Assembly (NCBI GenBank): GCA_949130485.1
Contig: OX422197.1
Location: 2,271,603 to 2,335,602 of the forward strand
Direction: 5' to 3'
Length of the DNA: 64,000 nucleotides
DNA from: Agelas oroides
Lineage: Eukaryota > Porifera > Demospongiae > Agelasida > Agelasidae
In this document: positions 1 through 64,000 of the stretch, in pieces
Numbering within the stretch: position 1 is the first letter of the stretch
Layout of the letters: each line of letters starts with the position of its first letter
Program-made: the position numbers and the translations under genes
Notes under the pieces: generated by a model
The model's input: only the letters and a program-made list of their open reading frames with translations
What the model was told of the DNA's origin: nothing
Databases searched by the model: none

Positions 1-62
1 CTCTAATACATTCTACCAAGGTTCTACTTGACTCTACATGACTCTACTTCATTCCACCATTG
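1..62 (+). repeat. Truncated 3' end of a class A unit
   Basis: Six subunits precede the first unit landmark. They match the last six subunits of the class A unit that follows, so the window begins inside the array and the array extends to the left. Confidence 0.85.
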
Positions 63-657
63 CTCTTCTTGACTCTACTTGACTGTACTACATTCTACCA
101 TGGCTGTACTTGGTTCCACTTAGCTCTACTACACTCTACCATGGTCTACTACATTCTACCAAGGCTCTACTTGACTCTACATGATCCTACAACATTCTAC
201 CTTGGATCTACTTCGCTTTACCTGGCTATACTACACTCTACCATGGCTCTACTACATTCTACCAAGGCTCTACTTCACTTTACATGACTCTACTACATTC
301 TACAAAGGCCCTTCTTGACTCTACTTCACTCTACTACACTCCACCGTGGCTGTATGTGGCTCTACTGGACTCTACTATACTCTACCATGGTCTACTCCAT
401 TCTACCAAGGCTATACTTGACTCTACATGATTCTAATACATTCTACCATGGATCTACTTGACTCTACTTGACTGTACTAAACTCTACTATGGCTCTACTA
501 CAATCTACCAAGGCTCTACTTGCCTCTACAAGACTCTACTACTCTCTACAATGACTCTACTTGGCTGTACCTGTCTGTACTACACTCTACCATGGCTCTA
601 CTACATTCTACCAAGGCTCTACTTGACTCTACATGACTCTCCTTCATTGCACCATGG
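63..657 (+). repeat. Class A higher-order unit, 595 bp, 58 subunits (reference copy)
   Basis: Counted subunit by subunit: 39 of 10 bp, 17 of 11 bp and 2 of 9 bp, total 595 bp, mean 10.26 bp. By pairs there are 12 complete 41-mers plus five extra half-repeats; the larger blocks run 41, 61, 41, 62, 41, 41, 61, 41, 62, 41, 62, 41. The landmark CTCTTCTTGA recurs exactly 595 bp later at 658. The unit also carries the subunits TTCCACTTAG, TTCTACAAAGG, CTCCACCGTGG and CTCTACTGGA, which identify class A elsewhere. 595 is not divisible by 3, so no reading frame is kept from unit to unit. Confidence 0.93.
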
Positions 658-8136: not shown

Positions 8137-8978
8137 CTCTTCTTGACTCTACTTGACTCTACTACACTCTACCATGGCTGCATGTACTTGGTTCTACTTA
8201 GCTCTGCTACACCCTATCATTGTTCTTCTACATTCTACCATGGGTCTATTTGCCTCAACATGACTTTACTGCACTCTACCATGGCTCTACTTGACTGTAC
8301 CTGGCTATACTACACTCTGCCATGGCTCTACTTGGCTGTACCTGGCTCTACTATACTCTACCATGGTCTACTACATTCTACCAAGGCTCTACTTGACTCT
8401 ACATGACTCTACTTCATTCCACCATTGCTCTTCTAGACTCTACTTGACTGTACTACATTCTACCGTGGCTGTACTTGGTTCCATTTATCTCTACTACACT
8501 CTACCATCTTCTACTACATTCTACCAAGGCTCTACTTGGCTGAACCTGGCTGTACTACACTCTGCCATGGCTCTAGTACATTCTACCAAGGCTCTTCGCT
8601 GTACATGACTCTACTACATTCTACAAAGGCCCTACTTGACTCTACTTCACTCTACTTCACTCCACCATGGCTCTGCGTCGCTCTACTTGACTCTACTATA
8701 CTCTGCCAAGGTCTACTACATTCTACCAAGGCTCTCCTTGACTCTACATGACTCTACTACATTCTACCATAGCTCTACTTCACTCTACTTGACTGTACTA
8801 AACTCTACTATGGCTCTACTACATTCTACCAAGGCTCTACTTGACTCTACACGACTCTACTACTCTCTACCATGACTCTACTTGGATGTACCTGTCTGTA
8901 CTACACTACACCATGGCTCTACTACATTCTACCAAGGCTCTACTTGACTCTACATGACTGTACTTCATTCCACCATTG
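8137..8978 (+). repeat. B-A-C fusion unit, 842 bp
   Basis: The first 291 bp (28 subunits) are a B segment ending at a second landmark, CTCTTCTAGA, at 8428. This is followed by about 120 bp of class A start and then class C, with an 8 bp subunit CTCTTCGC near 8593 in place of the usual 7 bp CTCTTGG. The unit is repeated 5,679 bp later at 13816-14657. Confidence 0.85.
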
Positions 8979-10168
8979 CTCTTCTTGACTCTACTTGACT
9001 GTACTAAATTCTGCCATGGCTGTACTTGGTTCCACTTAGCTCTACTACACTCTACCATGGTCTACTACATTCTACCAAGGCTCTACTTGACTCTACATGA
9101 TCCTACTACATCCTACCTTGGCTCTACTTGGCTGTACCTGGCTGTACGACACTCTGCCATGGCTCTACTACATTCTACCAAGGCTCTACTTCACTTTACA
9201 TGACTCTACTACATTCTACAAAGGCCCTTCTTGACTCTACTTCACTCTACTACACTCCACCGTGGCTCTATGTGGCTCTACGGGACTCTACTATACTCTA
9301 CCATGGTCTACTCCATTCTACCAAGGCTATACTTGACTCTACATGATTCTAATACATTCTACCATGGATCTACTTGACTCTACTTGACTGTACTAAACTC
9401 TACGATGGCTCTACTACATTCTACCAAGGCTCTACTTGACTCTACACGACTCTACTACTCTCTACAATGACTCTACTTGGCTGTACCTGTCTGTACTACA
9501 CTCTACCATGGCTCTACTACATTCTACCAAGGCTCTACTTGACTCTACATGACTCTACTTCATTCCACCATTGCTCTTCTTGACTCTACTTGACTGTACT
9601 ACATTCTACCATGGCTGTACTTTGTTCCATTTAGCTCTACTACACTCTACCATGGTCTACTACATTCTAACAAGGCTCTACTTGACTCTACATGATTCTA
9701 CTACATTCTACCTTGGCTCTACTTGGCTGTACCTGGCTCTACTACACTCTACCATGGCTCTACTACATTCTACCAAGGCTCTACTTCACTGTACATGACT
9801 CTACTACATTCTACAAAGGCCCTTCTTGACTCTACTTCACTCTACTACACTCCACCGTGGCTCTACGTGGCTCTACTGGACTCTACTATGCTCTACCGTG
9901 GTCTACTCCATTCTACCAAGGCTCTACTTGTCTCTACATGATTCTACTGCATTCTAACATGGATCTACTTGACTTTACTTGACTGTACTAAACTCTACTA
10001 TGGCTCTACTCCATTCTACCAAGGCTCTACTTGACTCTACACGACTCTACTACTCTCTACAATGACTCTACTTGGCTGTACCTGTCTGTACTACACTCTA
10101 CCATGGCTCTACTACATTCTACCAAGGCTCTACTAGACTCTACATGACTCTACTTCATTCTACCAATC
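8979..10168 (+). repeat. Two consecutive class A units, 595 + 595 bp
   Basis: Landmarks at 8979, 9574 and 10169. The first unit carries TACTAAATTCTGCC, TACATCCTACC and CTACGGGACTC; the second carries GTACTTTG, CACTGTACATG and CTACCGTGG. They correspond to the units at 14658 and 15253. Confidence 0.9.
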
Positions 10169-11603
10169 CTCTTCTTAACTCTACTTGACTCTACTACACT
10201 CTACCATGGCTGTACTTGGTTCTACTTAGCTCTACTACACCCTATCATTGCTCTTCTACATTCTACCATGGGTCTATTTGCCTAAACATGACTCTACTAC
10301 ACTCTACCATGGCTCTACTTCGCTGTACTTGGCTCTACTACACTCTGCCATGGCTCTACTACATTCTACCAATGCTCTACTTGACTCTACATGACTCTAC
10401 TACATTCTCCCATGGCCCTACGTGACTCTACTTCAATCTACTACAGTCTACCATGGCTCTACGTGGCTCTACTTGATTCTACTACTCTCTACCATGGTCT
10501 ACTTGACGCTACATGACTCTACTACATTCTACCATGGCTCTAATTGACTCTACTTGACTGTACTACACACTTCCATGGCTCTACTACATTCCACCAAGGC
10601 TCTACTTGACTCTATACGACTCTACTACTCTCTATCATGATTCTACTTGGCTGTACCTGTCTGTACTACACTCTACAATGGCTCTACTACATTCTACCAA
10701 GGCTCTACTTGGCTGAACCTGGCTGTACTACACTCTGCCATGGCTCTACTGCATTCTACCAAAGCTCTTGGCTGTACATGACTCTACTACATTCTACAAA
10801 GACCTTACATGACTCTACTTCACTCTACTACACTCCACCATGGCTCTGAGTGGCTCTACTTGACTCTACTGTACGCTACCAAGGTCTACTACATTCTACC
10901 AAGGCTCTACTTGACTCTACATGACTCTACTACATTCTACCATGGCTCTACTTCACTCTACTTGACTGTACTAAACTCTACTATGGCTCTACTACATTCT
11001 ACCAAGGCTCTACTTGACTCTACACGACTCTACTACTCTCTACCATGACTCTACTTGGATGTACCTGTCTGTACTACACTCCACCATGGCTCTACTACAT
11101 TCTACCAAGGCTCTACTTGACTCTTCATGATCCTACTACATTCTACCTTGGCTCTACTTGGCTGTACCTGGCTATACTACACTCTACCATGGCTCTACTA
11201 CATTCTACCAAGGCTCTACTTCACTTTACATGACTCTACTACATTCTACAAAGGCCCTTCTTGACTCTACTTCACTCTACTACACTCCACCGTGGCTGTA
11301 TGTGGCTCTACTGGACTCTACTATACTCTACCATGGTCTACTCCATTCTACCAAGGCTATACTTGACTCTACATGATTCTAATACATTCTACCATGGATC
11401 TACTTGACTCTACTTGACTGTACTAAACTCTACTATGGCTCTACTACAATCTACCAAGGCTCTACTTGCCTCTACAAGACTCTACTACTCTCTACAATGA
11501 CTCTACTTGGCTGTACCTGTCTGTACTACACTCTACCATGGCTCTACTACATTCTACCAAGGCTCTACTTGACTCTACATGACTCTCCTTCATTGCACCA
11601 TGG
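10169..11603 (+). repeat. BC composite fused to a truncated class A unit, 1,435 bp
   Basis: A BC composite (ACCCTATCATT near 10238, CTCTTGG near 10766 preceded by CCAAAG instead of CCAAGG) runs into a class A unit near 11040. Compared with the start of the window, that unit lacks about twelve subunits including the whole landmark region: CTTGACTCTTCATGATCC near 11120 joins directly to the later part of the unit. The second copy is at 15848-17282. Confidence 0.83.
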
Positions 11604-12401
11604 CTCTTCTTGACTCTACTTGACTGTACTACATTCTACCATGGCTGTACTTTGTTCCATTTAGCTCTACTACACTCTACCATGGTCTACTACATTATAA
11701 CAAGGCTCTACTTGACTCTACATGATTCTACTACATTCTACCTTGGCTCTACTTGGCTGTACCTGGCTCTACTACACTCTGCCATGGCTCTAGTACATTC
11801 TACCAAGGCTCTACTTCACTGTACATGACTCTACTGCATTCTACCAAGGCTCTACTTGACTCTATACGACTCTACTACTCTCTACCATGATTCTACTTGG
11901 CTGTACCTGTCTGTACTACACTCTACAATGGCTCTACTACATTCTACCAAGGCTCTACTTGGCTGAACCTGGCTGTACTACACACTGCCATGGCTCTACT
12001 GCATTCTACCAAGGCTCTTGGCTGTACATGACTCTACTACATTCTACAAAGGCCCTACTTGACTCTACTTCATTCTACTACACTCCACCATGGCTCTGCG
12101 TGGCTCTACTTGACTCTACTATACTCTACCAAGGTCTACTACATTCTACCAAGGCTCTACTTGACTCTACATGACTCTACTACATTCTACCATGGCTCTA
12201 CTTGACTCTACTTGACTGTACTAAACTCTACTATGGCTCTACTACATTCTACCAAGGCTCTACTTGACTCTACACGACTCTACTACTCTCTACCATGACT
12301 CTACTTGGATGTACCTGTCTGTACTACACTCCACCATGCCTCTAATACATTCTACCAAGGCTCTACTTGACTCTACATGACTCTACTTCATTCCACCATT
12401 G
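11604..12401 (+). repeat. A/C composite unit, 798 bp
   Basis: A close copy of 658-1455 at an offset of 10,946 bp. Private variants are ACATTATAACAAGG near 11692 and CACACTGCC near 11981. It corresponds to 17283-18080 in the second copy of the 5,679 bp arrangement. Confidence 0.87.
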
Positions 12402-24278: not shown

Positions 24279-24296
24279 TACTTCATTCTACCATTC
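23107..24296 (+). repeat. Two consecutive class A units, 595 + 595 bp
   Basis: Landmarks at 23107, 23702 and 24297. The second is the ATCTTCTTGA subtype and closely matches 3789-4383 (offset 19,913 bp). Private changes include CACAGTGG near 23982 in place of CACCGTGG. Confidence 0.88.
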
Positions 24297-35131: not shown

Positions 35132-37802
35132 CTCTTCTTGACTCTCCTTGACTCTACTACACCTTACCATGGCTGTACTTGGTTCTACTTAGCTCTACTA
35201 CACCCTATCATTCTTCTACATTCTACCATGGGTCTATTTGCCTCAACATGACTCTACTACACTCTACCATGGCTCTACTTCGCTGTACTTGGCTCTGCTA
35301 CACTCTGCCATGGCTCTACTACATTCTACCAATGCTCTACTTGACTCTACATGACTCTACTACATTCTCCCATGGCCCTAGATGACTCTACTTCACTCTA
35401 CTACAGTCTACCATGGCTCTACGTGGCTCTACTTGACTCTTCTACACTCTACCATGGTCTACTTGACGCTACATGACTCTACTACATTCTACCATGGCTC
35501 TAATTAACACTACTTGACTGTACTACACACTGCCATGGCTCTACTACATTCTACCAACACTCTGCTTGACTCTATACGACTCTACTACTCTCTTCCATGA
35601 TTCTACTTGGCTGTACCTGTCTGTACTACACTCTACAATGCCTCTACTACATTCTACCAAGGCTCTACTTGGCTGAACCTGGCTGTACTACACTCTGCCA
35701 TGGCTCTACTACATTCTACCAAGGCTCTTGGCTGTACATGACTCTACTACATTCTACAAGGCCCTACTTGACTCTACTTCACTCTACTATACTCCACCAT
35801 GGCTCTGCGTGGCTCTACTTGACTCTACAATACTCTACCAAGGTCTACTACATTCTACCAAGGCTCTACTTGACTCTACATCACTCTACTACATTCTACC
35901 ATGGCTCTACTTCACTCTACTTGACTGTACTAAACTCTACTATGTCTCTACTAAAGTCTACCAAGGCTCTACTTGACTCTACACGACTCTACTACTCTCT
36001 ACAATGACTCTACTTGGCTGTACCTGTCTGTACTACACTCTACCATGGCTCTACTACATTCTACCAAGGCTCTACTTGACTCTGCATGACTCTACTTCAT
36101 TCCGCCATTGATCTTCTTGACTCTACTTGACTGTACTACATTCTACCATGGCTGTACTTTGTTCCATTTAGCTCTACTACACTCTACCATGGTCTACTAC
36201 ATTCTACCAAGGCTCTACTTGCCTCTAAATGATTCTACTACATTCTAGCTTGGCTATACTTGGCTGTACCAGGCTCTACTACACTCTGCCATGCCTCTAC
36301 TACATTCTACCAAGGCTCTACTTCACTGTACATGACTCTACTACATTCTACAAAGGCCCTTCTTGACTCTATACTTCACTCTACTACACTCCACCGTGGC
36401 TCTACGTGGCTCTACTAGACTCTACTATACTCTACCTTGGTCTACTCCATTCTACCAATGCTCTACTTGACTCTACATGATTCTACTACATTCTAACATG
36501 GATCTACTTGACTCTACTTGACTGTACTAAACTCTACTATGGCTCTACTACATTCTACCAAGGCTCTACTTGACTCTACACGACTCTACTACTCTCTACA
36601 ATGACTCTACTTGGCTGTACCTGTTGGTACTACACTCTACCATGGCTCTACTACATTCTACCAAGGCTCTACTAGACTCTACATGACTCTACTTCATTCT
36701 ACCATTCCTCTTCTTGACTCTACTTGACTCTACTACACTCTACCATGGCTGTACTTGGGTCTACTTAGCTCTACTACACCCTATCATTGCTCTTCTACAT
36801 TCTACCATGGGTCTATTCGCCTCAACATGACTCTACTACACTCTACCATGGCTATACTTGGCTGTACCTGGCTCTACTACTCTCTACCATGGCTCTACTA
36901 CATTCCACCAATGCTCTACTTGACTCTACATGACTCTACTACATTCTCCCATGGCCCTACATGACTCTACTTCACTCTACTACATTCTACCAATGCTCTA
37001 CTTGACTGTACATGCCTCTACTGCATTCCACAAAGGGCCTACTTGACTCCACTTCACTCTACTACACTTCACCATGACTCTACATGGCTCTACTATACTC
37101 TACCATGTTCTACTACATTCTACCAATGCTCTACTTGACTCTACATGACTCTACTACATTCTCCTATGGCCCTACGTGACTCTACTTCACTCTACTACAG
37201 TCTACCATGGCTCTACGTGGCTCTACTTGACTCTACTACACTCTACCATGGTCTACTTGACGCTACATGACTCTACCACATTCTACCATGGCTCTAATTG
37301 ACTCTACTTGACTGTACTACACACTGCCATGGCTCTACTACATTCTACCAAGGCTCTACTTTGCTGAACCTGGCTGTACTACACTCTGCCATGCCTCTAC
37401 TACATTCTACCAAGGCTCTTGGCTGTACATGACTCTACTACATTCTACAAAGGCCCTACTTGACTCTACTTCACTCTACTACACTCCACCATGGCTCTGC
37501 GTGGCTCTACTTGACTCTACTATACTCTACCAAGGTATACTACATTCTACCAAGGCTCTACTTGACTCTACATGACTCTACTACATTCTACCATGACTCT
37601 ACTTGACTCTACTTGACTGTACTAAACTCTACTATGGCTCTACTACGTTCTACCAAGTCTCTACTTGACTCTACACGACTCTACTACTCTCTACAATGGC
37701 TCTACTTGGCTGTACCTGTCTGTACTACACTCTACCATGGCTCTACTACATTCTACCAAGGCTCTACTTGACTCTACATGACTCTACTTCATTCTACCAT
37801 TC
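35132..37802 (+). repeat. 2,671 bp block, copy 2
   Basis: Sub-unit starts 35132, 36111 and 36708 (979, 597 and 1,095 bp), in the same order and with the same private variants as copy 1. A 3 bp deletion in the B marker (CTATCATTCTTCTAC near 35208) is shared with copy 3 but not with copy 1, so copies 2 and 3 are the closest pair. Confidence 0.92.
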
Positions 37803-45263: not shown

Positions 45264-46861
45264 CTCTTCTTGACTCTACTTGACTGTACTACACTCTACC
45301 ATGCCTGTACTTGGTTCTACTTAGCTCTACTACACTCTACCATGGTCTACTACATTCTACCAAGACTCTACTTGACCCTACATGACTCTACTACATTCTA
45401 CCATGGCTCTACTTGCCTGTACCTGTCTCTACTACACTCTGCCATGGCTCTGCTACATTCTACCAAGTCTCTACTTGGCTGTACATTACTCTACTACATT
45501 CTACAAAGGCCTTACTTGACTCTACTTCACTCTACTACACTCCACCATGGCTCTACATGGCTCTACTTGACTGTATTACATTCTACTATGGTTCTACTAC
45601 ATTCTACCAAGGCTCTACTTGACTCTACACGACTCTACTACTCTCTACTATGACTCTACTTGGCTGTACCTGTCTGTACTACACTCTACCATGACTCTAC
45701 TACATTCTACCTAGGCTCTACTTGACTCTACATGACTCTACTTCATTCTACCATTGCTCTTCTTGACTCTACTTGACTCCACTACACTCTACCATGGCTG
45801 TTTACTTGGTTCTACTTAGCTCTACTACACCCTATCATTACTGTTCTACATTCTACCATGGGTATATTCACCTGAACATGACTCTACTACACTCTACCAT
45901 GGCTCTACTTGGCTGTACCTGGCTCTACTACTCTCTGCCATGGCTATACTACATTCTACCAATGCTCTACTTGACTCTACATGACTCTACTACATTCTCC
46001 CATGGCCCTACTTGACTCTACTTCACTCTACTACATTCTACCAAGGCTCTACTTGGCTGTACCTGGCCCTACTAAACTCTCCCATGGCTCTACTACATTC
46101 TACCAAGGCTCTACTTGACTGTACATGACTCTACTGCATTCTACAAAGGCAGTACTTGACTCTACTTCACTCTACTACACTTCACCATGGCTCTACGTGG
46201 CTCTACTTGACTCTACTACACTCTACCATGTTCTACTACATTCTACCAAGGCTCTACTTGACTCTACATGGCTCTACTACATTCTCCCATGGCTGTACTT
46301 AGTTCTACTTGACTATACTAAACTCTACTATGGCTCCACTACATTCTACCAAGGCTCTTATACTTGACTCTACACGACTCTACTACATTCTACCTTGGCT
46401 CTACTTGGCTGTACCTGGCTCTACTACACTCAGCCATGGCTCTACTACATTCTACCAAGGCTCTACTTGACTCTACATGTCTCTACTACTCTCTACCATG
46501 AGTCTACTTGGATGTACCTGTCTGTACTACACTCTACCATGACTCTACTACATTCTACCATGGCTCTATTTGACTCTACTTGACTGTACTACACTCTACT
46601 ATGGTTCTACTACATTCTACCAAGGCTCTACTTGACTGTACTACACTCTACTATGGTTCTACTACATTCTACCAAGGCTCTACTTGACTCTACATCACTC
46701 TACTTCATTCCACCATTGCTCTTCTTGACTCTACTTGACTGTACTACACTCTACCATGCCTGTACTTGGTTCTACTTAGCTCTACTACACTCTACCGTGA
46801 TCTACTACATTCTACCAAGGCTCTACTTGACTCTCCATGACTCTACTTCATTCCACCATTG
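45264..46861 (+). repeat. Irregular A/B units at the start of the 8,072 bp block (493 + 962 + 143 bp)
   Basis: 45264 is the CTACCATGCC subtype. 45757 is a B unit with GCTGTTTACTTGG near 45798 and GGTATATTCACCTGAACATG near 45862. It contains a CTTATACTTGA insertion near 46345 and the 52 bp tandem duplication near 46574. 46719-46861 is a 143 bp (14-subunit) fragment between two landmarks. Confidence 0.8.
46574..46677 (+). repeat. 52 bp tandem duplication, five subunits
   Basis: CTCTACTTGA, CTGTACTACA, CTCTACTATGG, TTCTACTACA and TTCTACCAAGG (52 bp) occur at 46574-46625 and again, without mismatch, at 46626-46677. The same pair is in block copy 2 (54646-54749). Block copy 3 has the 52 bp once (62674-62725). 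Confidence 0.92.
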
Positions 46862-48342
46862 CTCTTCTTGACTCTACTTGACTGTCCTACACTCTACCAT
46901 GGCTGTACTTGGTTCTACTTAGCTCTACAACAATCTACCAAGGTGTACTACATTCTACCAAGACTCTACTTGACTCTACATGACTCTACTACATTCTACC
47001 ATGGCTCTACTTGGCTGTACCTGGCTCTACTACACTCTGCCATGGCTCTACTACATTCTACCAAGGCTCTACTTCACTTTACATGACTCTACTACATTCT
47101 ACAAAGGCCCTACTTGACTCTACTTCACTCTACTACACTCCACCGTGGCTCTACGTAGCTCTACTTGACTCCACTATACTCTACCATGGTCTACTCCATT
47201 CTGCCACGTCTCTACTTGACTCTACATGACTCTACTACATACTACCATGGATCTACTTGACTCTACTTGACTGTACTAAACTCTACTATGGCTCTACTAC
47301 ATTCTACCAAGGCTCTACTTGACTCTACACTACTCTACTACTCTCTACCATGACTCTACTTGGCTGTACCTGTCTGTACTACACTCTACCATGGCTCTAC
47401 TCCATTCTACCAAGGCTCTACTTGACTCTACATGATTCTACTTCATTCTACCATTGCTCTTCTTTACTCTACTTGACTCTACTACACTCTACCATGGCTG
47501 CATGTACTTGGTTCTACTTAGCTCTACTACACCCTATCATTGCTCTTCTACATTCTACCATGGGTCTATTTGCCTCAACATGACTCTACTACATTCTACC
47601 ATGGCTCTACTTGGCTGTACCTGGCTATACTACACTCTGCTATGGCTCTACTTGGCTGTACCTGGCTCTACTATACTCTCCCATGGTCTACTACATTCTA
47701 CCAAGGCTCTACTTGACTCTACATGACTCTACTTCATTCCACCATTGCTCTTCTAGACTCTACTTGACTGTACTACATTCTACCATGACTGTACTTGGTT
47801 CCATTTAGCTCTACTACACTCTATCATGATCTACTACATTCTACCAAGGCTCTACTTGACTCTACATGATTCTACTACATTCTACCTTGGCTCTACTTGT
47901 CTGTACCTGGCTATACTACACTCTGCCATGGCTCTACTGCATTCTACCAAAGCTCTACTTCACTTTACATGACTCTACTACATTCTACGAAGGCCCTTCT
48001 GGACTCTACTTCACTCTACTACACTCCACCGTCGCTCTACGTGGCTCTACTGGACTCTACTTTACTCTACAATGGTCTACTCCATTCTACCAAGGCTCTA
48101 CTTGACTCTACATGATTCTACTACATTCTACCATGGATCAACTTGACTCTACTTGACTGTACTAAACTCTACTATGGTTCTACTACATTCTACCAAGGCT
48201 CTACTTGACTCTACACGACTCTGCTACTCTCTACAATGACTCTATTTGGCTGTACCTGTCTTTACTACACTCTACCATGTCTCTACTATATTCTACCAAG
48301 GCTCTACTTGACTCTACATGACTCTACTTCATTCTACCATTC
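46862..48342 (+). repeat. A (595 bp) - B (291 bp) - A (595 bp) group
   Basis: Landmarks 46862, 47457, 47748 and 48343. The first A has CTACAACAATCTACC near 46925, a GTGTAC subunit and CTGCCACGTCTC near 47202. The B has CTGCATGTACTTGG. The second A starts with CTCTTCTAGA and carries TCTACGAAGG and CACCGTCGC. Confidence 0.87.
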
Positions 48343-49325
48343 CTCTTCTTGACTCTACTTGACTCTACTACACTCTACCATGGCTGTACTTGGTTCTACT
48401 TAGCTCTACTACACCCTATCCTTGTTCTTCTACATTCTACCATGGGTCTATTTGCCTCAACATGACTCTACTACACTCTACCATGGCTCTACTTCGCTGT
48501 ACTTGGCTCTACTACACTCTGCCATGGCTCTACTACATTCTACCAATGCTCTACTTGACTCTACACGACTCTACTACATTCTTCCATGGCCCTACATGAC
48601 TCTACTTCACTCTACTACAGTCTACCATGGCTCTACGTGGCTCTACTTGACTGTACTACACTCTACCATGGTCCACTTGACGCTACATGACTCTGCTACA
48701 TTCTACCTTGGCTCTAATTGACTCTACTTGACTGTACTACACACTGCCATGGCTCTACTACATTCTACCAAGGCTCTACTTGACTCTATACGACTCTACT
48801 ACTCTCTACCATGATTCTACTTGGCTGTACCTGTCTGTACTACACTCTACAATGGCTCTACTACATTGTACCAAGGCTCTACTTGGCTGAACCTGGCTGT
48901 ACTACACTCTGCCATGCCTCTACTACATTCTACCAAGGCTCTTGGCTGTACATGACTCTCCTACATTCTACAAAGGCCCTACTTGACTCTACTTCACTCT
49001 ACAACACTCCACCATCGCTCTGCATGTCTCTACTTGACTCTACTATACTCTACCAAGGTCTACTACATTCTACCAAGGCTCTACTTGACTCTACATGACT
49101 CTACTACATTCTACCATAGCTCTACTTGACTCTACTTGACTGTACTAAACTCTACAATGGCTCTACTACATTCTACCAAGGCTCTACTTGACTCTACACG
49201 ACTCTACTACTCTCTACCATGACTCTACTTGGATGTACCTGTCTGTACTACACTCCACCATGGCTCTACTACATTCTACCAAGGCTCTTCTTGACTCTAC
49301 ATTACTCTACTTCATTCCACCATTG
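48343..49325 (+). repeat. BC composite unit, 983 bp
   Basis: Standard BC with ACCCTATCCTT near 48411 (private to this unit and its copy at 56415), CTTCCATGG near 48580, CACCATCGC near 49010 and CTCTGCATGTCTC near 49018. C marker CTCTTGG near 48940. Confidence 0.87.
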
Positions 49326-51764
49326 CTCTTCTTGAATCTACTTGACTGTACTACATTCTACCATGGCTGTACTTGGTTCCACTTAGCTCTAATACACTCT
49401 ACCATGGTCTACTACATTCTACGAAGGCTCTACTTGACTCTACATGATTCTACTACATTCTACCTTGGCTCTACTTGGCTGTACCTGACTCTACTACACT
49501 CTGCCATGGCTCTACTACATTCTACCAAGGCTCTACTTCACTTTACATGACTCTACTACATTCTACAAAGGCCCTACTTGACTCTACTTCACTCTACTAC
49601 ACTCCACCGTGACTCTACGTAGCTCTACTTGACTCCACTATACTCTACCATGGTCTACTCCATTCTACCAAGGCTCTACTTGACTCTGCATTACTCCACT
49701 ACATTCTACCATGGATCTACTTGACTCTACTTGACTGTACTAAATTCTACTATGGCTCTGCTACATTCTACCAAGGCTCTACTTGACTCTGCACGACTCT
49801 ACTACTCTCTACCATGGCTCTACTTGGCTGTACCTGGCTCTACTACACTCTGCCATGGCTCTAGTACATTGTACCAATGCTCTACTTGACTCTACATGAC
49901 TCTACTACATTCTCCCATGGCCCTACTTTAATCTACTTCACTCTACTACAGTCTACCATGGCTCTACGTGGCTCTACTTGACTCTACTACACTCTACCAT
50001 GGTCTACGTGACGCTACATGACTCTACTACATTCTACCATGGCTCTACTTGACTCTCCTTGACTGTACTACTTTCTACCATGGCTCTACTTGACTCTACT
50101 TGACTGTACTACACTCTACCATGCCTGTACTTGGTTCTACTTCGCTCTACTACATTCTACCATGGCTCTACTTGCCTGTACCTCTCTCTACTACACTCTA
50201 CCATGGCTATACTACATTCTACCAAGGCTCTACTTGGCTGTACATTACTCTACTACATTCTACAAAGGCCCTACTTGACTCTACTTCACTCTACTACATT
50301 CCACCATGGCTCTACGTGGCTCTACTTGACTGTACTACATTCTACTATGGTTCTACTTGACTCTACACGACTCTACTACTCTCTACCATGACTCTACTTG
50401 GCTGTACCTGTCTGTACTACACTCTACCATGACTCTACTACATTCTACCTGGGCTCTACTTGACTCTACATGACTCTACTTCATTCTACCATTGCTCTTC
50501 TTCAGTCTACTTGACTCTACTACACTCTACCATGGCTGTACTTGGTTCTACTTAGCTCTACTACACCCTATCATTGCTCTTCTATAATCTACCATGGGTC
50601 TATTCGCCTCAACATGACTCTACTACACACTACCATGGCTCTACATGGCTGTACCTGGCCCTACTACTCTCTGCCATGGCTATACTACATTCTACCAATG
50701 CTCTACTTGACTCTACATGACTCTACTACATTCTCCCATGGCCCTACATGAATCTACTTCACTCTACTACATTCTACCAAGGCTCTACTTGGCTGTACCT
50801 GGCTCTACTACACTCTGCCATGGCTCTACTACATTCTACCAAGGCTCTACTTGACTGTACATGACTCTACTGCATTCTACAAAGGCCCTACTTGACTCTA
50901 CTTCACTCTACTCCACTTCACCATGGCTCTACGCGGCTCTACTTGACTCTACTATACTCTACCATGTTCTACTACATTCTACCAATGCTCTACTTGACTC
51001 TACATGACTCTACTACATTCTCCCATGGCCCTACGTGACTCTACTTCACTCTACTACAGTCTACCATGGCTCTACGTGGCTCTACTTGACTCTACTACAC
51101 TCTACCATGGTCTACTTGACGCTACATGACTCTACTACATTCTACCATGGCTCTAATTGACTCTACTTGACTGTACTACACACTGCCATGGCTCTACTAC
51201 ATTCTACCAAGGCTCTACTTGACTCTATACGACTCTACTACTCTCTACCATGATTCTACTTGGCTGTACCTGTCTGTACTACACTCTACAATGGCTCTAC
51301 TACATTGTACCAAGGCTCTACTTGGCTGAACCTGGCTGTACTACACTCTGCCATGCCTCTACTACATTCTACCAAGGCTCTTGGCTGTACATGACTCTAC
51401 TACATTCTACAAAGGCCCTACTTGACTCTACTTCACTCTACTACGCTCCACCATGGCTTTGCGTGGCTCTACTTGACTCTACTATACTCTACCAAGGTCT
51501 ACTACATTCTACCAAGGCTCTACTTGACTCTACATGACTCTACTACATTCTACCATGGCTCTACTTGACTCTACTTGACTGTACTAAACTCTACTATGGC
51601 TCTACTACGTTCTACCAAGGCTCTACTTGACTCTACACGACTCTACTACTCTCTACCATGACTCTACTTGGATGTACCTGTCGGTACTACACTCCACCAT
51701 GGCTCTACTACATTCTACCAAGGCTCTACTTGACTCTACATGACTCTAATTCATTCCACCATTG
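49326..51764 (+). repeat. Two long irregular units, 1,169 and 1,270 bp
   Basis: 49326 begins as class A, continues at about 49840 with the B-C junction subunits, then has a CTACCATGCC subtype segment near 50120. 50495 begins as B (TATAATCTACC near 50583, TCTATTCGCCTCAACATGA), passes through a CTCTACGCGG subunit near 50930 and ends in class C (CTCTTGG near 51380). No non-repeat sequence is present in either. Confidence 0.8.
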
Positions 51765-53335
51765 CTCTTCTTGACTGTACTTGACTGTACTACATTCTAC
51801 CATGGCTGTACTTGGTTCCACTTAGCTCTAATAAACTCTACCATGGTCTACTACATTCTACCAAGGCTCTACTTGAATCTACATGATACTAGTACATTCT
51901 ACCTTGGCTCTACTTTGCTGTACCTGGCTCTACTACACTCTGCAATGGCTCTACTACATTCTACCAAGGCTCTACTTCACTTTACATGACTCTACTACAT
52001 TCTACAAAGGCCCTACTTGACTCTACTTCACTCTACTACACTCCACCGTGGCTCTACGTAGCTCTACTTGACTCCACTATACTCTACCATGGTCTACTCC
52101 ATTCTAACAAGGCTCTACTTGACTCTACATGACTCTACTACATTCTACCATGGATCTACTTGACTCTACTTGACTGTACTAAACTCTACCATGGCTCTAC
52201 TACATTCTACCAAGGCTCTACTTGACTCTACACGACTCTACCACTCTCTACCATGACTCTACTTGGCTGTACCTCGCTCTACTACACTCTGCCATGGCTA
52301 TACTACATTCTACCAAGGCTCTACTTCACTTTACATGATGCTACTACATTCTACAAAGGCCCTACTTGACTCTACTTCACTCTACTACACTCCACCGTGG
52401 CTCTACGTAGCTCTACTTGACTCCACTATACTCTACCATGGTCTACTCCATTCTACCAAGGCTCTACTTGACTCTACATGACTTTACTACATTCTACCAT
52501 GGATCTACTTGACTCTACTTGACTGTACTAAACTCTACTATGGCTCTACTACATTCTACCAAGGCTCTACTTGACTCTTCACGACTCTACTACTCTCTAC
52601 CATGACTCTACTTGGTTGTACCTATCTGTACTACACTCTACCATGGCTCTACTACATTCTACCATCGCTCTACTTGACTCTACATGATTCTACTTTATTC
52701 TACCATTGCTCTTCTTGACTCTACTTGACTCTACTACACTCTACCATGGCTGCATGTACTTGGTTCTACTTAGCTCTACTACACCCTATCATTGCTCTTC
52801 TACATTCTACCATGGGTCTATTTGCCTCAACATGACTCTACTACACTCTACCATGGCTCTACTTGGCTGTACCTGGCTCCACTACACTCTGCCATGGCTC
52901 TACTACATTCTACCAATGCTCTACTTGACTCTACATGACTCTACTACATTCTCCCATGGCCCTACTTGACTCTACTTCACTCTACTACAGTCTACCATTG
53001 CTCTACGTGGCTCTACTTGTCTCTACTACACTCTACCGTGGTCTACTTGACGCTACATGACTCTACTACATTCTACCATGGCTCTACTTGACTCTACTTG
53101 ACTGTACTACATTCTACCATGGCTCTACTTGACTCTACTTGACTGTACTAAACTCTACTATGGCTCTACTACATTCTACCAAGACTCTACTTGACTCTAC
53201 ACGACTCTACTACTCTCTACCATGACTCTACTTGGATGTACCTGTCTGTTTACTACACTCTACCATGGCTCTACTACATTCTACCAAGCCAAGTCTCTAC
53301 TTGACTCTACATGACGCTACTTCATTCAACCATTG
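51765..53335 (+). repeat. A/A partial composite (944 bp) and B unit (627 bp)
   Basis: 51765 is class A with CTAATAAACTC near 51828, followed by a partial second class A (join near 52260), like 40948. 52709 is B with CTGCATGTACTTGG, and it ends in a doubled 41 bp repeat near 53085-53165. The GCCAAGT insertion lies at the right end. Confidence 0.82.
53285..53295 (+). repeat. 5 bp insertion GCCAAGT-type between subunits
   Basis: CTACCAAGCCAAGTCTCTAC replaces CTACCAAGGCTCTAC. It is present at the start of block copies 2 and 3 (near 61357) but not before copy 1 (near 45213). It is therefore a marker of the joint between 8,072 bp blocks. Confidence 0.85.
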
Positions 53336-56300
53336 CTCTTCTTGACTCTACTTGACTGTACTACACTCTACCATGCCTGTACTTGGTTCTACTTAGCTCT
53401 ACTACACTCTACCATGGTCTACTACATTCTACCAAGACTCTACTTGACTCTACATGACTCTACTACATTCTACCATGGCTCTACTTGCCTGTACCTGTCT
53501 CTACTACACTCTGCCATGGCTCTGCTACATTCTACCAAGTCTCTACTTGGCTGTACATTACTCTACTACATTCTACAAAGGCCTTACTTGACTCTACTTC
53601 ACTCTACTACACTCCACCATGGCTCTACGTGGCTCTACTTGACTGTACTACATTCTACTATTGTTCTACTACATTCTACCAAGGCTCTACTTGACTCTAC
53701 ACGACTCTACTACTCTCTACTATGACTCTACTTGGCTGTACCTGTCTGTACTACACTCTACCATGACTCTACTACATTCTACCTAGGCTCTACTTGACTC
53801 TACATGACTCTACTTCATTCTACCATTGCTCTTCTTGACTCTACTTGACTCCACTACGCTCTACCATGGCTGTTTACTTGGTTCTACTTAGCTCTACTAC
53901 ACCCTATCATTGCTGTTCTACATTCTACCATGGGTATATTCGCCTGAACATGACTCTACTACACTCTACCATGGCTCTACTTGGCTGTACCTGGCTCTAC
54001 TACTCTCTGCCATGGCTATACTACATTCTACCAATGCTCTACTTGACTCTACATGACTCTACTACATTCTCCCAAGGCCCTACTTGACTCTACTTCACTC
54101 TACTACATTCTACCAAGGTTCTACTTGGCTGTACCTGGCCCTACTACACTCTGCCATGGCTCTACTACATTCTACCAAGGCTCTACTTGACTCTACATGA
54201 TTCTACTGCATTCTACAAAGGCAGTACTTGACTCTACTTCACTCTACTACACTTCACCATGGCTCTACGTGGCTCTACTTGACTCTACTACACTCTACCA
54301 TGTTCTACTACATTCTACCAAGGCTCTACTTGACTCTACATGGCTCTACTACATTCTACCATGGCTGTACTTAGTTCCACTTGACTATACTAAACTCTAC
54401 TATGGCTCCACTACATTCTACCAAGGCTCTTATACTTGACTCTACACGACTCTACTACATTCTACCTTGGCTCTACTTGGCTGTACCTGGCTCTACTACA
54501 CTCAGCCATGGCTCTACTACATTCTACCAAGGCTCTACTTGACTCTACATGTCTCTACTACTCTCTACCATGAGTCTACTTGGATGTACCTGTCTGTACT
54601 ACACTCTACCATGACTCTACTACATTCTACCATGGCTCTATTTGACTCTACTTGACTGTACTACACTCTACTATGGTTCTACTACATTCTACCAAGGCTC
54701 TACTTGACTGTACTACACTCTACTATGGTTCTACTACATTCTACCAAGGCTCTACTTGACTCTACATCACTCTACTTCATTCCACCATTGCTCTTCTTGA
54801 CTCTACTTGACTATACTACACTCTACCATGCCTGTACTTGGTTCTACTTAGCTCTACTACACTCTACCGTGATCTACTACATTCTACCAAGGCTCTACTT
54901 GACTCTCCATGACTCTACTTCATTCCACCATTGCTCTTCTTGACTCTACTTGACTGTCCTACACTCTACCATGGCTGTACTTGGTTCTACTTAGCTCTAC
55001 AACAATCTACCAAGGTGTACTACATTCTACCAAGACTCTACTTGACTCTACATGACTCTACTACATTCTACCATGGCTATACTTGGCTGTACCTGGCTCT
55101 ACTACACTCTGCCATGGCTCTACTACATTCTACCAAGGCTCTACTTCACTTTACATGACTCTACTACATTCTACAAAGGCCCTACTTGACTCTACTTCAC
55201 TCTACTACACTCCACCGTGGCTCTACGTAGCTCTACTTGACTCCACTATACTCTACCATGGTCTACTCCATTCTGCCACGTCTCTACTTGACTCTACATG
55301 ACTCTACTACATACTACCATGGATCTACTTGACTCTACTTGACTGTACTAAACTCTACTATGGCTCTACTACATTCTACCAAGGCTCTACTTGACTCTAC
55401 ACTACTCTACTACTCTCTACCATGACTCTACTTGGCTGTACCTGTCTGTACTACACTCTACCATGGCTCTACTCCATTCTACCAAGGCTCTACTTGACTC
55501 TACATGATTCTACTTCATTCTACCATTGCTCTTCTTTACTCTACTTGATTCTACTACACTCTACCATGGCTGCATGTACTTAGTTCTACTTAGCTCTACT
55601 ACACCCTATCATTGCTCTTCTACATTCTACCATGGGTCTATTTGCCTCAACATGACTCTACTACATTCTACCATGGCTCTACTTGGCTGTACCTGGCTAT
55701 ACTACACTCTGCTATGGCTCTACTTGGCTGTACCTGGCTCTACTATACTCTCCCATGGTCTACTACATTCTACCAAGGCTCTACTTGACTCTACATGACT
55801 CTACTTCATTCCACCATTGCTCTTCTAGACTCTACTTGACTGTACTACATTCTACCATGACTGTACTTGGTTCCATTTAGCTCTACTACACTCTATCATG
55901 ATCTACTACATTCTACCAAGGCTCTACTTGACTCTACATGATTCTACTACATTCTACCTTGGCTCTACTTGTCTGTACCTGGCTATACTACACTCTGCCA
56001 TGGCTCTACTGCATTCTACCAAGGCTCTACTTCACTTTACATGACTCTACTACATTCTACGAAGGCCCTTCTGGACTCTACTTCACTCTACTACACTCCA
56101 CCGTCGCTCTACGTGGCTCTACTGGACTCTACTTTACTCTACAATGGTCTACTCCATTCTACCAAGGCTCTACTTGACTCTACATGATTCTACTACATTC
56201 TACCATGGATCAACTTGACTCTACTTGACTGTACTAAACTCTACTATGGTTCTACTACATTCTACCAAGGCTCTACTTGACTCTACACGACTCTGCTACT

Positions 56301-59300: not shown

Positions 59301-61407
59301 ACGACTCTACTACTCTCTACCATGATTCTACTTGGCTGTACCTGTCTGTACTACACTCTACAATGGCTCTACTACATTGTACCAAGGCTCTACTTGGCTG
59401 AACCTGGCTGTACTACACTCTGCCATGCCTCTACTACATTCTACCAAGGCTCTTGGCTGTACATGACTCTACTACATTCTACAAAGGCCCTACTTGACTC
59501 TACTTCACTCTACTACGCTCCACCATGGCTTTGCGTGGCTCTACTTGACTCTACTATACTCTACCAAGGTCTACTACATTCTACCAAGGCTCTACTTGAC
59601 TCTACATGACTCTACTACATTCTACCATGGCTCTACTTGACTCTACTTGACTGTACTAAACTCTACTATGGCTCTACTACGTTCTACCAAGGCTCTACTT
59701 GACTCTACACGACTCTACTACTCTCTACCATGACTCTACTTGGATGTACCTGTCGATACTACACTCCACCATGGCTCTACTACATTCTACCAAGGCTCTA
59801 CTTGACTCTACATGACTCTAATTCATTCCACCATTGCTCTTCTTGACTGTACTTGACTGTACTACATTCTACCATGGCTGTACTTGGTTCCACTTAGCTC
59901 TAATAAACTCTACCATGGTCTACTACATTCTACCAAGGCTCTACTTGAATCTACATGATTCTACTACATTCTACCTTGGCTCTACTTTGCTGTACCTGGC
60001 TCTACTACACTCTGCAATGGCTCTACTACATTCTACCAAGGCTCTACTTCACTTTACATGACTCTACTACATTCTACAAAGGCCCTACTTGACTCTACTT
60101 CACTCTACTACACTCCACCGTGGCTCTACGTAGCTCTACTTGACTCCACTATACTCTACCATGGTCTACTCCATTCTAACAAGGCTCTACTTGACTCTAC
60201 ATGACTCTACTACATTCTACCATGGATCTACTTGACTCTACTTGACTGTACTAAACTCTACTATGGCTCTACTACATTCTACCAAGGCTCTACTTGACTC
60301 TACACGACTCTACCACTCTCTACCATGACTCTACTTGGCTGTACCTCGCTCTACTACACTCTGCCATGGCTATACTACATTCTACCAAGGCTCTACTTCA
60401 CTTTACATGATGCTACTACATTCTACAAAGGCCCTACTTGACTCTACTTCACTCTACTACACTCCACCGTGGCTCTACGTAGCTCTACTTGACTCCACTA
60501 TACTCTACCATGGTCTACTCCATTCTACCAAGGCTCTACTTGACTCTACATGACTTTACTACATTCTACCATGGATCTACTTGACTCTACTTGACTGTAC
60601 TAAACTCTACTATGGCTCTACTACATTCTACCAAGGCTCTACTTGACTCTTCACGACTCTACTACTCTCTACCATGACTCTACTTGGTTGTACCTATCTG
60701 TACTACACTCTACCATGGCTCTACTACATTCTACCATCGCTCTACTTGACTCTACATGATTCTACTTTATTCTACCATTGCTCTTCTTGACTCTACTTGA
60801 CTCTACTACACTCTACCATGGCTGCATGTACTTGGTTCTACTTAGCTCTACTACACCCTATCATTGCTCTTCTACATTCTACCATGGGTCTATTTGCCTC
60901 AACATGACTCTACTACACTCTACCATGGCTCTACTTGGCTGTACCTGGCTCCACTACACTCTGCCATGGCTCTACTACATTCTACCAATGCTCTACTTGA
61001 CTCTACATGACTCTACTACATTCTCCCATGGCCCTACTTGACTCTACTTCACTCTACTACAGTCTACCATTGCTCTACGTGGCTCTACTTGTCTCTACTA
61101 CACTCTACCGTGGTCTACTTGACGCTACATGACTCTACTACATTCTACCATGGCTCTACTTGACTCTACTTGACTGTACTACATTCTACCATGGCTCTAC
61201 TTGACTCTACTTGACTGTACTAAACTCTACTATGGCTCTACTACATTCTACCAAGACTCTACTTGACTCTACACGACTCTACTACTCTCTACCATGACTC
61301 TACTTGGATGTACCTGTCTGTTTACTACACTCTACCATGGCTCTATTACATTCTACCAAGCCAAGTCTCTACTTGACTCTACATGACGCTACTTCATTCA
61401 ACCATTG
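53336..61407 (+). repeat. 8,072 bp block, copy 2
   Basis: Complete copy with unit starts 53336, 53829, 54791, 54934, 55529, 55820, 56415, 57398, 58567, 59837 and 60781, all exactly 8,072 bp after those of copy 1. The 52 bp duplication and all irregular joints are kept. Single-base changes seen include CTTAGTTCTAC near 55580 and CAAGTCCCT near 57045. Confidence 0.93.
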
Positions 61408-64000
61408 CTCTTCTTGACTCTACTTGACTGTACTACACTCTACCATGCCTGTACTTGGTTCTACTTAGCTCTACTACACTCTACCATGGTCTACTACATT
61501 CTACCAAGACTCTACTTGACTCTACATGACTCTACTACATTCTACCATGGCTCTACTTGCCTGTACCTGTCTCTACTACACTCTGCCATGGCTCTGCTAC
61601 ATTCTACCAAGTCTCTACTTGGCTGTACATTACTCTACTACATTCTACAAAGGCCTTACTTGACTCTACTTCACTCTACTACACTCCACCATGGCTCTAC
61701 GTGGCTCTACTTGACTGTACTACATTCTACTATTGTTCTACTACATTCTACCAAGGCTCTACTTGACTCTACACGACTCTACTACTCTCTACTATGACTC
61801 TACTTGGCTGTACCTGTCTGTACTACACTCTACCATGACTCTACTACATTCTACCTAGGCTCTACTTGACTCTACATGACTCTACTTCATTCTACCATTG
61901 CTCTTCTTGACTCTACTTGACTCCACTACGCTCTACCATGGCTGTTTACTTGGTTCTACTTAGCTCTACTACACCCTATCATTGCTGTTCTACATTCTAC
62001 CATGGGTATATTCGCCTGAACATGACTCTACTACACTCTACCATGGCTCCACTTGGCTGTACCTGGCTCTACTACTCTCTGCCATGGCTATACTACATTC
62101 TACCAATGCTCTACTTGACTCTACATGACTCTACTACATTCTCCCAAGGCCCTACTTGACTCTACTTCACTCTACTACATTCTACCAAGGTTCTACTTGG
62201 CTGTACCTGGCCCTACTACACTCTGCCATGGCTCTACTACATTCTACCAAGGCTCTACTTGACTGTACATGACTCTACTGCATTCTACAAAGGCAGTACT
62301 TGACTCTACTTCACTCTACTACACTTCACCATGGCTCTACGTGGCTCTACTTGACTCTACTATACTCTACCATGTTCTACTACATTCTACCAAGGCTCTA
62401 CTTGACTCTACATGGCTCTACTACATTCTACCATGGCTGTACTTGGTTCTACTTGACTATACTAAACTCTACTATGGCTCTACTACATTCTATCTTGGCT
62501 CTACTTGGCTGTACCTGGCTCTACTACACTCAGCCATGGCTCTACTACATTCTACCAAGGCTCTACTTGACTCTACATGTCTCTACTACTCTCTACCATG
62601 ACTCTACTTGGATGTACCTGTCTGTACTACACTCTACCATGACTCTACTACATTCTACCATGGCTCTATTTGCCTCTACTTGACTGTACTACACTCTACT
62701 ATGGTTCTACTACATTCTACCAAGGCTCTACTTGACTCTACATCACTCTACTTCATTCCACCATTGCTCTTCTTGACTCTACTTGACTATACTACACTCT
62801 ACCATGGCTGTACTTGGTTCTACTTAGCTCTACTACACTCTACCATGATCTACTACATTCTACCAAGGCTCTACTTGACTCTCCATGACTCTACTTCATT
62901 CCTCCATTGCTCTTCTTGACTCTACTTGACTGTACTACACTCTACCATGGCTGTACTTGGTTCTACTTAGCTCTACTACAATCTACCAAGGTGTACTACA
63001 TTCTACCATGACTCTACTTGACTCTACATGACTCTACTACATTCTACCATGGCTCTACTTGGCTGTACCTGGCTCTACTACACTCTGCCATGGCTCTACT
63101 ACATTCTACCAAGGCTCTACTTCACTTTACATGACTCTACTACATTCTACAAAGGCCCTACTTGACTCTACTTCACTCTACTACACTCCACCGTGGCTCT
63201 ACGTAGCTCTACTTGACTCCACTATACTCTACCATGGTCTACTCCATTCTGCCACGGCTCTACTTGACTCTACATGACTCTACTACATTCTACCATGGAT
63301 CTACTTGACTCTACTTGACTGTACTAAACTCTACTATGGCTCTACTACATTCTACCAAGGCTCTACTTGACTCTACACGACTCTACTACACTCTACCATG
63401 ACTCTACTTGGCTGTACCTGTCTGTACTACACTCTACCATGGCTCTACTACATTCTACCAAGGCTCTACTTGACTCTACATAATTCTACTTCATTCTACC
63501 ATTGCTCTTCTTTACTCTACTTGACTCTACTACACTCTACCATGGCTGCATGTACTTGGTTCTACTTAGCTCTACTACACCCTATCATTGCTCTTCTACA
63601 TTCTACCATGGGTCTATTTGCCTCGACATGACTCTACTACATTCTTCCATGGCTCTACTTGGCTGTACCTGGCTATACTACACTCTGCCATGGCTCTACT
63701 TGGCTGTACCTGGCTCTACTATACTCTACCATGGTCTACTACATTCTACCAAGGCTCTACTTGACTCTACATGACTCTACTTCATTCCACCATTGCTCTT
63801 CTAGACTCTACTTGACTGTACTACATTCTACCATAGCTGTACTTGGTTCCATTTAGCTCTACTACACTCTACCATGGTCTACTACATTCTACCAACGCTC
63901 TACTTGACTCTACATGACTCTACTTCATTCCACCATTGCTCTTCTTGACTCTACTTGACTGTACTACATTCTACCATGGCTGTACTTGGTTCCATTTAGA
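61408..64000 (+). repeat. 8,072 bp block, copy 3 (cut by the window end)
   Basis: Follows copy 2 at exactly 8,072 bp until 62490, then at 7,976 bp: 44 bp are missing at 62488-62498 (joint TTCTATCTTGG), and one of the two 52 bp repeats is missing near 62674. Together that is 96 bp. Unit starts 61408, 61901, 62767, 62910, 63505, 63796 and 63939. The last joint, near 63900, departs from copy 2. The array continues past the window. Confidence 0.9.

What the first reader, a model, noticed from the sequence alone, without database searches (positions are those of the whole stretch)
1..64000. Subunit period of ~10.25 bp, close to one DNA helical turn, kept over 64 kb
Seen: the CTCTAC motif recurs every 10 or 11 bp; in the 595 bp unit 58 subunits average 10.26 bp, and in the 41 bp repeat four average 10.25 bp. 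Established: B-DNA has about 10.5 bp per turn. Inference: every CTCTAC lies on nearly the same face of the helix, drifting by only a few degrees per subunit. The array could therefore present thousands of equal sites in line for a cooperative binding protein, or could impose strong rotational positioning on nucleosomes.
Basis: partly seen in the sequence, partly recalled or inferred. Interest (0 to 1): 0.75.

Follow-up and report, generated by a model that had tools for sequence, protein, structure and literature searches.

The report
Sponge satellite with helical-turn repeat spacing
The window lies wholly inside a huge tandem-repeat (satellite) array, probably of a sponge, whose 10- and 11-letter subunits average about one turn of the DNA helix; this would let histones grip it in a regular orientation, but the spacing looks inherited from how the repeat was copied rather than tuned.

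Summary
The window is one uninterrupted satellite array: 6,137 of 6,204 subunit intervals are 10 or 11 bp, mean 10.26 bp, with a sharp Fourier peak at 10.253-10.255 bp. It lies in a 259-Mb genome, probably a demosponge. The family was seen on 13 contigs (15,801 exact copies of one 21-mer). Samples from four other contigs average 10.26-10.29 bp.

"Thousands of sites on one face" fails: at 10.5 bp/turn, phase coherence falls from 0.78 (150 bp) to 0.21 (430 bp). At the nucleosomal 10.2 bp/turn it is 0.93 over 150 bp, so rotational setting within one nucleosome is plausible. A crude bending model gives about twice a control's rotational contrast, but higher wrapping energy than flanking DNA. The regularity is mostly explained by a 41-bp ancestor and few indels; phase-shifting variants were amplified and indels are not purged with age. 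The CTCTAC core changes about as fast as linkers in the freshest copies, somewhat slower in some older classes.

Best reading: a candidate (peri)centromeric satellite of a known kind, its helical phase a by-product.

The parts
1..64000 (+). one-orientation satellite array of 10/11-bp subunits (core CTCTAC plus a 4- or 5-nt linker: TACA, TTGA, CATGG, ATGA, CAAGG ...)
   Evidence: no reverse-strand CTCTAC; no ORF of 300 aa or more; no Rfam family at gathering threshold
46201..54000 (+). about 7.8-kb segment whose closest copy lies 8,072 bp further on (about 54273-62072), 99.2-100% identical by 600-bp blocks
   Evidence: boundaries to about 600 bp
8401..12000 (+). segment whose closest copy lies 5,679 bp further on (about 14080-17679), 99.3-100% identical
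   Evidence: boundaries to about 600 bp
33001..35400 (+). segment whose closest copy lies 2,671 bp further on (about 35672-38071), 99.8-100% identical
   Evidence: boundaries to about 600 bp

Best explanation
This is a long satellite-DNA array, most likely part of the pericentromeric or centromeric heterochromatin of a demosponge chromosome. SHOWN: it is made of 10- and 11-bp subunits with a near-constant CTCTAC core; 11s fall almost only in every second slot; four subunits make a 41-bp repeat that is itself arranged in higher-order repeats (HORs) and multi-kb duplications; relatives were seen on 12 other contigs, and the four of these sampled in one orientation (C2, C3, C14, C21) have other HOR periods. 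INFERRED: the array grew by tandem amplification (unequal exchange and segmental duplication) from a roughly 10-bp, then 20/21-bp, then 41-bp unit, and the 10.26-bp mean (three 10s, one 11) is inherited from that 41-bp unit. INFERRED: because 10.26 bp is close to the 10.2-bp twist of nucleosomal DNA, any nucleosome formed here should prefer one rotational setting, with TA steps and GG/GC steps on opposite faces. That would be a physical by-product that may help compaction; nothing here shows it is selected.
For: Array anatomy. Family seen on C1, C2, C3, C8, C9, C12, C14, C15, C16, C18, C21, C22 and C23. Exact matches keep one strand over wide spans: 26 of 26 on C14 over 250 kb (-), 11 of 11 on C21 over 357 kb (+), 46 of 46 at C12 1.96-2.03 Mb (+); the C1 cluster is mixed. 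Neighbouring 192-bp and 186-bp satellites, LINE-like ORFs and a TIR insertion mark repeat-rich DNA. 41-bp inheritance: phase variance per 58 subunits in the main C15 block is 0.84 bp2 observed, 11.06 with lengths permuted, but already 1.86 when only the gaps between 11s are shuffled. Short indels are few in recent duplicates (3 per 142 substitutions) and do not become rarer with age (1:47, 1:39, 1:27.5, 1:17). Rotational register within 150 bp and bending-model contrast.
Against: No cenH3, FISH or Hi-C data, so centromeric location is inference. C3 (8.24-8.59 and 11.85 Mb) and C12 (1.96-2.03 and 4.45 Mb) carry two loci each, C1 has eight small sites outside its main cluster, and C8, C9 and C18 gave a single match each. 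In pairs 97-99% identical the core changes at 0.72 of the linker rate (0.60-0.87), which could mean some constraint on the core. Observed order of 11s is more even than all 200 gap shuffles in the main C15 block at 10-100 subunits, and at some spans in C15e, C21 and C2; periodic HORs would do this too, but I ran no control for that. The two short C1 arrays are less regular (111 of 125 and 21 of 23 intervals 10/11 bp) than the window, though the C1 cluster and C12 are intermediate (92.5-95.1%).
Confidence: 0.68

Rival explanations
1. Helical phase is selected: the 10/11 mix is kept at the nucleosomal twist because rotationally set nucleosomes (ordinary or cenH3) are more stable or better at kinetochore formation.
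For: Samples of four other arrays with different HOR periods keep 10.26-10.29 bp; 98.9% of window intervals are 10/11 bp; model contrast of the five natural arrays is highest at 10.3 of eight helical repeats tried; a related idea is in print for Drosophila 10-mers (PMC5844345, passages).
Against: 41 bp is a top period in every array sampled, so they are probably not independent. Irregular intervals that shift phase are amplified: 105 of 8,690 intervals in the main C15 block, 41 of them shifting by -3 bp and 24 by +5. Short indels rise rather than fall relative to substitutions with age. In the model a pure 10-mer array has MORE contrast than the natural mix at 10.2 bp/turn (51.8 against 32-37), and the natural arrays' energy is higher than flanks.
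Confidence: 0.12
2. A sequence-specific protein binds the CTCTAC cores side by side and bundles or compacts the arrays, as Prod does for the 10-bp satellite of Drosophila.
For: Core positions 2-6 are 86-96% one base over all subunits while the linkers vary; core/linker change ratio 0.72 in 97-99% pairs and 0.64 in 88-94% pairs.
Against: In the freshest pairs (99-100%) the base-standardised ratio is 0.905 (0.65-1.24). Conversion between subunits that share a core would also erase core changes. At most 2,976 of 6,205 subunits have the exact core. The sites wind round the helix at 10.5 bp/turn. No protein identified; none was sought.
Confidence: 0.15
3. Pure neutral or selfish tandem repeat: an amplified minisatellite with no effect from its period at all. 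(These readings overlap, so the odds given do not sum to one.)
For: Hierarchical repeats, multi-kb recent duplications, dispersed small copies on C1, no long ORF and no Rfam match.
Against: One-strand matches spanning 70-360 kb on several contigs and, on C15, neighbouring satellites of 186 and 192 bp suggest a structural place; physical phasing in a nucleosome follows from the sequence whether or not it matters.
Confidence: 0.3

Closest known systems
Prodsat, the (AATAACATAG)n 10-bp centromeric/pericentromeric satellite of Drosophila melanogaster
   Same: 10-bp unit close to one helical turn in long arrays; rotational phasing was put forward as its possible advantage (PMC5844345, passages)
   Different: AA-containing exact 10-mer; here pyrimidine-rich on one strand, 10/11-bp mix averaging 10.26 bp with a 41-bp unit and HORs; AA steps rare; sequence unrelated; cenH3 enrichment reported there, unknown here; in the crude model Prodsat bends more easily (best-setting energy 112 and 79 in the two versions against 124-126 and 118-122 here)
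Dodeca satellite of Drosophila (11/12-mer CGGTCCCGTACT / GGTCCCGTACT)
   Same: satellite that mixes two unit lengths differing by 1 bp near the helical turn (named in PMC5844345, passages)
   Different: 11/12 rather than 10/11 bp, GC-rich, depleted in that paper's cenH3 pull-downs
20-bp centromeric repeat of Astragalus sinicus
   Same: short unit of two helical turns at centromeres, cited in PMC5844345 as possibly serving the same role (passage)
   Different: plant; sequence not compared here
Human alpha satellite
   Same: HORs of diverged monomers, homogenised locally (recalled)
   Different: 171-bp nucleosome-length monomer (table in PMC8122249); no 10-bp subunit (recalled)

Membership tests
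satellite DNA (general) | non-coding tandem repeats in long arrays, high copy, with higher-order structure | tested here: met
   about 128 kb of array in the C15 stretch read, in five blocks, still continuing at its end
short-unit (about 10 bp) satellite of the Drosophila Prodsat kind | unit close to one helical turn | tested here: met
   10/11 bp, mean 10.26
short-unit (about 10 bp) satellite of the Drosophila Prodsat kind | AA / WW dinucleotides strongly phased at 10 bp | tested here: not met
   main C15 block: WW as a class 0.26; AA phased 0.73 but rare (1,459 steps); TA 0.65
centromeric satellite | cenH3 nucleosomes on the arrays | not testable with these tools
   no chromatin data
centromeric satellite | a major array on each chromosome | tested here: inconclusive
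   13 of 141 contigs seen to carry it, C3 and C12 at two loci each; two of the four pattern listings were cut at 100 places, and contigs are not known to be chromosomes
centromeric satellite | CENP-B box (pattern recalled) | tested here: not met
   0 matches in the window; chance expectation also 0; many centromeres lack it (recalled)
nucleosome-positioning DNA | rotationally anisotropic at about 10.2 bp | tested here: met
   model contrast 26-37 kT-like units over two model versions against 13-15 in a Markov control and 14-17 in flanks (crude model, recalled parameters)
nucleosome-positioning DNA | low wrapping energy | tested here: not met
   best-setting energy 124-126 against 115-119 in flanks L009/L011 (ideal superhelix) and 118-122 against 112-114 (roll-dominated) (same caveat)

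The most novel reading that the evidence does not exclude
The arrays are the centromeres of a sponge and work by helical register: a mix of 10- and 11-bp subunits maintained at the nucleosomal twist of about 10.2-10.3 bp, so that cenH3 nucleosomes are rotationally fixed at any translational position, with neither a nucleosome-length monomer nor a CENP-B box.
Probability: 0.07. Interest if true: 0.75.

Novelty: new member of a known kind. Interest (0 to 1): 0.4.

Why it matters
Three searches of the held library (1 paper listed, 15 of 23 listed, 3 of 3 listed; listings only) showed no title or abstract describing this repeat or a sponge centromeric satellite; passages of one sponge genome paper mention a centromere only as a likely scaffold split (PMC7385117). 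If chromatin maps place the repeat at centromeres it would give a handle on centromeres in an early-branching animal group. It would also be a natural test of an idea already published for fly 10-mers, that repeat length near the nucleosomal twist matters, because here the mean is set by a roughly 3:1 mix of 10s and 11s and differs slightly between contigs.

Tried and rejected
Protein-coding repeat: rejected, no ORF of 300 aa or more in six frames, and the 41-bp period is not a multiple of three. Structured RNA: no Rfam match at gathering threshold. CENP-B box: none, with no power at this composition. Viral or bacterial origin: the 21-mer has 0 exact matches in viral contigs and genome contigs. 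A literature search for the motif listed one plant paper, which I did not open.

Phase lock by selection: looked strong at first (phase variance 1.5 against 93 bp2 over 500 subunits), but shuffling only the gaps between 11s already removes most of the difference, so it is largely the 41-bp inheritance.

A rough indel budget: 1.6-2.0 non-consensus bases per subunit and 1 short indel per 17-47 substitutions predict about 4-11% length-changed subunits. Seen are 1.1% irregular (67 of 6,204) plus about 2.6% of subunits with a 5-nt-type linker short of one base (163, leaving out 97 CTGG). This is a deficit of threefold at most, and the expectation is inflated by old subunit types, so I do not read it as selection.

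The recalled 601 sequence is no fair yardstick for rotational contrast here, because a single 147-bp piece gives only 19 windows (its contrast came out at 17.0 and 5.2); I draw nothing from it.
Full report
WHAT IS THERE. The 64-kb window is one uninterrupted satellite array in one orientation: CTCTAC 2,976 times on the + strand, never on the - strand, 41-52 per kb throughout. It lies at 2,271,603-2,335,602 of an 8.7-Mb contig (C15) of a 259-Mb genome in 141 contigs. In the stretch that I read, the C15 array runs in five blocks from about 2,252.5 kb to 2,395.6 kb, about 128 kb in all (in 250-bp bins), still continuing at the end of what I fetched.

ORGANISM. A 22.4-kb contig (C141) carries cox1 (PF00115 match in two pieces, with 5 and 6 TGA inside) with a LAGLIDADG-like frame between them. 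By eye from the translations, with no family search, its neighbours are nad6, nad3 and nad4L before and nad1 after, with trnR, trnS, trnA and trnC called by ARAGORN. This is a demosponge order as I recall it; no call named the species. TTAGGG repeats occur. I therefore say 'probably a demosponge'.

PERIOD. The Fourier fundamental is 10.2531/10.2548 bp (power about 77 against a mean of 0.72), with stronger harmonics at 2.566, 3.42 and 5.13 bp. Segmentation gives 6,204 intervals: 4,539 of 10, 1,598 of 11, 67 of other length; 10/11 mean 10.260 bp. This segmentation learns its length prior from the data. A flat prior over nine array pieces lowers the 10/11 share to 14,433 of 15,515 (93.0%), probably because degenerate cores let the anchor slip; exact-core spacing gives 6,267 of 6,380 among spacings of 16 bp or less. 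The best-fitting period in 2.4-kb windows averages 10.261 (s.d. 0.026).

HIERARCHY. The 11s sit almost only in alternate slots: gaps between successive 11s in the window are 2 (345), 4 (1,038), 6 (136), 8 (30), with 48 of 1,597 odd. I read this as a 20/21-bp dimer and a 41-bp tetramer; 103, 144, 246, 349 and 595 bp are then sums of such pieces. On top of this are fresh duplications: all 106 of 106 600-bp blocks have another near-full copy inside the window, median identity 99.2% (range 80.8-100%), the commonest shifts being 8,072, 5,679 and 2,671 bp.

PHASE. The array keeps a mean period, not a phase. Vector strength at 10.2546 bp is 0.94 (150 bp), 0.82 (600 bp), 0.57 (2.4 kb), 0.30 (64 kb). 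At 10.5 bp, the usual value for B-DNA in solution, it is 0.78 (150 bp) and 0.21 (430 bp); at 10.2 bp, 0.93 (150 bp) and 0.80 (430 bp). So the cores wind round naked DNA once in about 44 subunits, but stay in register within a nucleosome. That nucleosomal DNA has about 10.2 bp per turn is recalled; a peak at about 10.2 bp in the AA/TT/TA signal around mapped yeast nucleosomes is in PMC2522279 (passages).

IS THE REGULARITY SELECTED? With lengths permuted, the variance of position over 58 subunits is 11.06 bp2; with only the gaps between 11s shuffled it is 1.86 (smallest of 200: 1.47); observed 0.84 (main C15 block). The 41-bp inheritance thus explains most of the regularity; periodic HORs should add to it, though I ran no control for that. 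At 58 subunits the other five arrays tested (C15e, C2, C3, C14, C21) lie within the range of their 200 gap shuffles; at other spans C15e and C21 (10 and 20 subunits, C21 also 40) and C2 (100 subunits) fall below all 200, C3 and C14 at none of the six spans. Intervals that break phase are amplified: 105 of 8,690 in the main C15 block, 41 of them shifting by -3 bp and 24 by +5. In nearest-copy pairs, short indels (at most 9 bp) per substitution are 3/142 (99-100% identity), 14/549 (97-99%), 18/495 (94-97%) and 43/735 (88-94%). Selection against phase shifts predicts the opposite trend.

IS THE CORE SELECTED? Over all subunits the core is far more uniform than the linkers. Of 397 blocks of 400 bp, 392 had a near-full partner, giving 288 unique pairs; 255 fell in the four identity classes used, and the other 33 were left out. 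The core/linker ratio is 0.89, 0.74, 0.84 and 0.64 from fresh to old. Standardised for base composition it is 0.905 (0.65-1.24) for 99-100% and 0.723 (0.60-0.87) for 97-99%. Dropping subunits with more than one change gives 0.908, 0.711, 0.886 and 0.682, the second and fourth with intervals below 1. A mild deficit of core changes is thus seen in two of four age classes; constraint and conversion between subunits that share a core would both produce it.

OTHER ARRAYS. Exact 21-mer copies: 9,574 + 6,227 in the genome, 0 for the reversed control. Loci on 13 contigs came from four pattern searches, two of whose listings were cut at 100 places. Of the 45 places listed on C1, 27 fall in one 35-kb cluster at 26.35-26.38 Mb, the rest at eight smaller sites. 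Samples of 8 kb from C2, C3, C14 and C21 share the 41-bp period but differ in the next ones (72/113/154; 82; 72/82; 103/62), with means of 10.260, 10.277, 10.285 and 10.292 bp and 96.5, 98.8, 99.0 and 98.3% 10/11 intervals; the C1 sample changes strand inside. Less regular are two pieces of that C1 cluster (247 of 264 and 328 of 350), two overlapping C12 pieces, one of which may hold some flank (136 of 143 and 246 of 266), and two small C1 arrays (111 of 125 and 21 of 23).

NUCLEOSOME MODEL. I used recalled Olson-type step parameters; PMC4823781 reports that Olson's set predicts occupancy poorly (passages). Rotational contrast is 26-37 for the arrays (two model versions) against 13-15 for a Markov control and 14-17 for flanks; in the roll-dominated version it is highest at 10.3 of eight values tried for each of the five natural arrays. 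Against tuning: synthetic arrays of one 10-mer (45 and 52) or one 41-mer (42 and 54) have more contrast than the natural ones, and the pure 10-mer exceeds them up to 10.3 bp/turn. The mean energy is higher than in flanks (136-138 against 120-126), and so is the best-setting energy (124-126 against 115-119; 118-122 against 112-114). TA centres at 5.1, GG at 9.9 and GC at 0.5 bp of the subunit, about half a turn apart, but TT/AT/AA fall at 7.9-9.0, so WW as a class is weakly phased (0.26). So rotational anisotropy: likely. Strong attraction: not predicted. No result here is experimental.

COMPARISON. The nearest known kind is the 10-bp satellite Prodsat of Drosophila, for which rotational phasing has been proposed as an advantage at centromeres (PMC5844345, passages) and which is bound by Prod in chromocentres (PMC6382350, abstract and outline only). 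A review states that most satellite units are nucleosome-length or 5-10 bp long (PMC8122249, passages). Ours resembles that kind in unit length; it fails the WW-phasing feature, and cenH3 binding could not be tested. I file it as a new member of the broad kind 'short-unit satellite', not as Prodsat-like in sequence.

VERDICT. Observation right; 'one face' wrong beyond about 200 bp of naked DNA; rotational setting in nucleosomes plausible; selection for it not shown; centromeric role a fair guess that needs chromatin data.

Noticed in passing
L010 1-9770 (C15:2232001-2241770): A different satellite, 192-bp unit, about 51 copies at 91% matches, about 10.7 kb upstream of the CTCTAC array.
   Followed up: partly
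L017 1-5719 (C15:2365603-2371321): A third satellite, 186-bp unit, about 31 copies at 95% matches, between two CTCTAC blocks.
   Followed up: partly
L012 6958-8515: A 1.56-kb insertion with perfect 14-bp terminal inverted repeats (TAGCGATCTCCAAC) inside the array; a second 1.5-kb interruption lies about 3.5 kb on and was not compared with it.
   Followed up: partly
L009 2242-6616 (-), L011 206-4160: LINE-like reverse transcriptase and endonuclease frames, one of 1,000 aa, upstream of the array; named by eye, no family search run.
   Followed up: no
G000:C107:16176-16808: A COX1 match without any stop or TGA inside, unlike the mitochondrial copy; possibly a bacterial symbiont contig in the assembly.
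   Followed up: no
G000:C141 (22,436 bp), L035/L036: Mitochondrial cox1 in two pieces with a LAGLIDADG-like frame between them.
   Followed up: no
L029 (C1:26350001-26358000): A CTCTAC array that changes strand inside, with about 1 kb without the motif between the two parts.
   Followed up: no
window: Strong strand asymmetry: 65.5% pyrimidine on + (T 21,485, C 20,465, A 14,593, G 7,457); CG is about 5- to 6.5-fold below expectation in the five C15 blocks, partly because the motif holds none.
   Followed up: no
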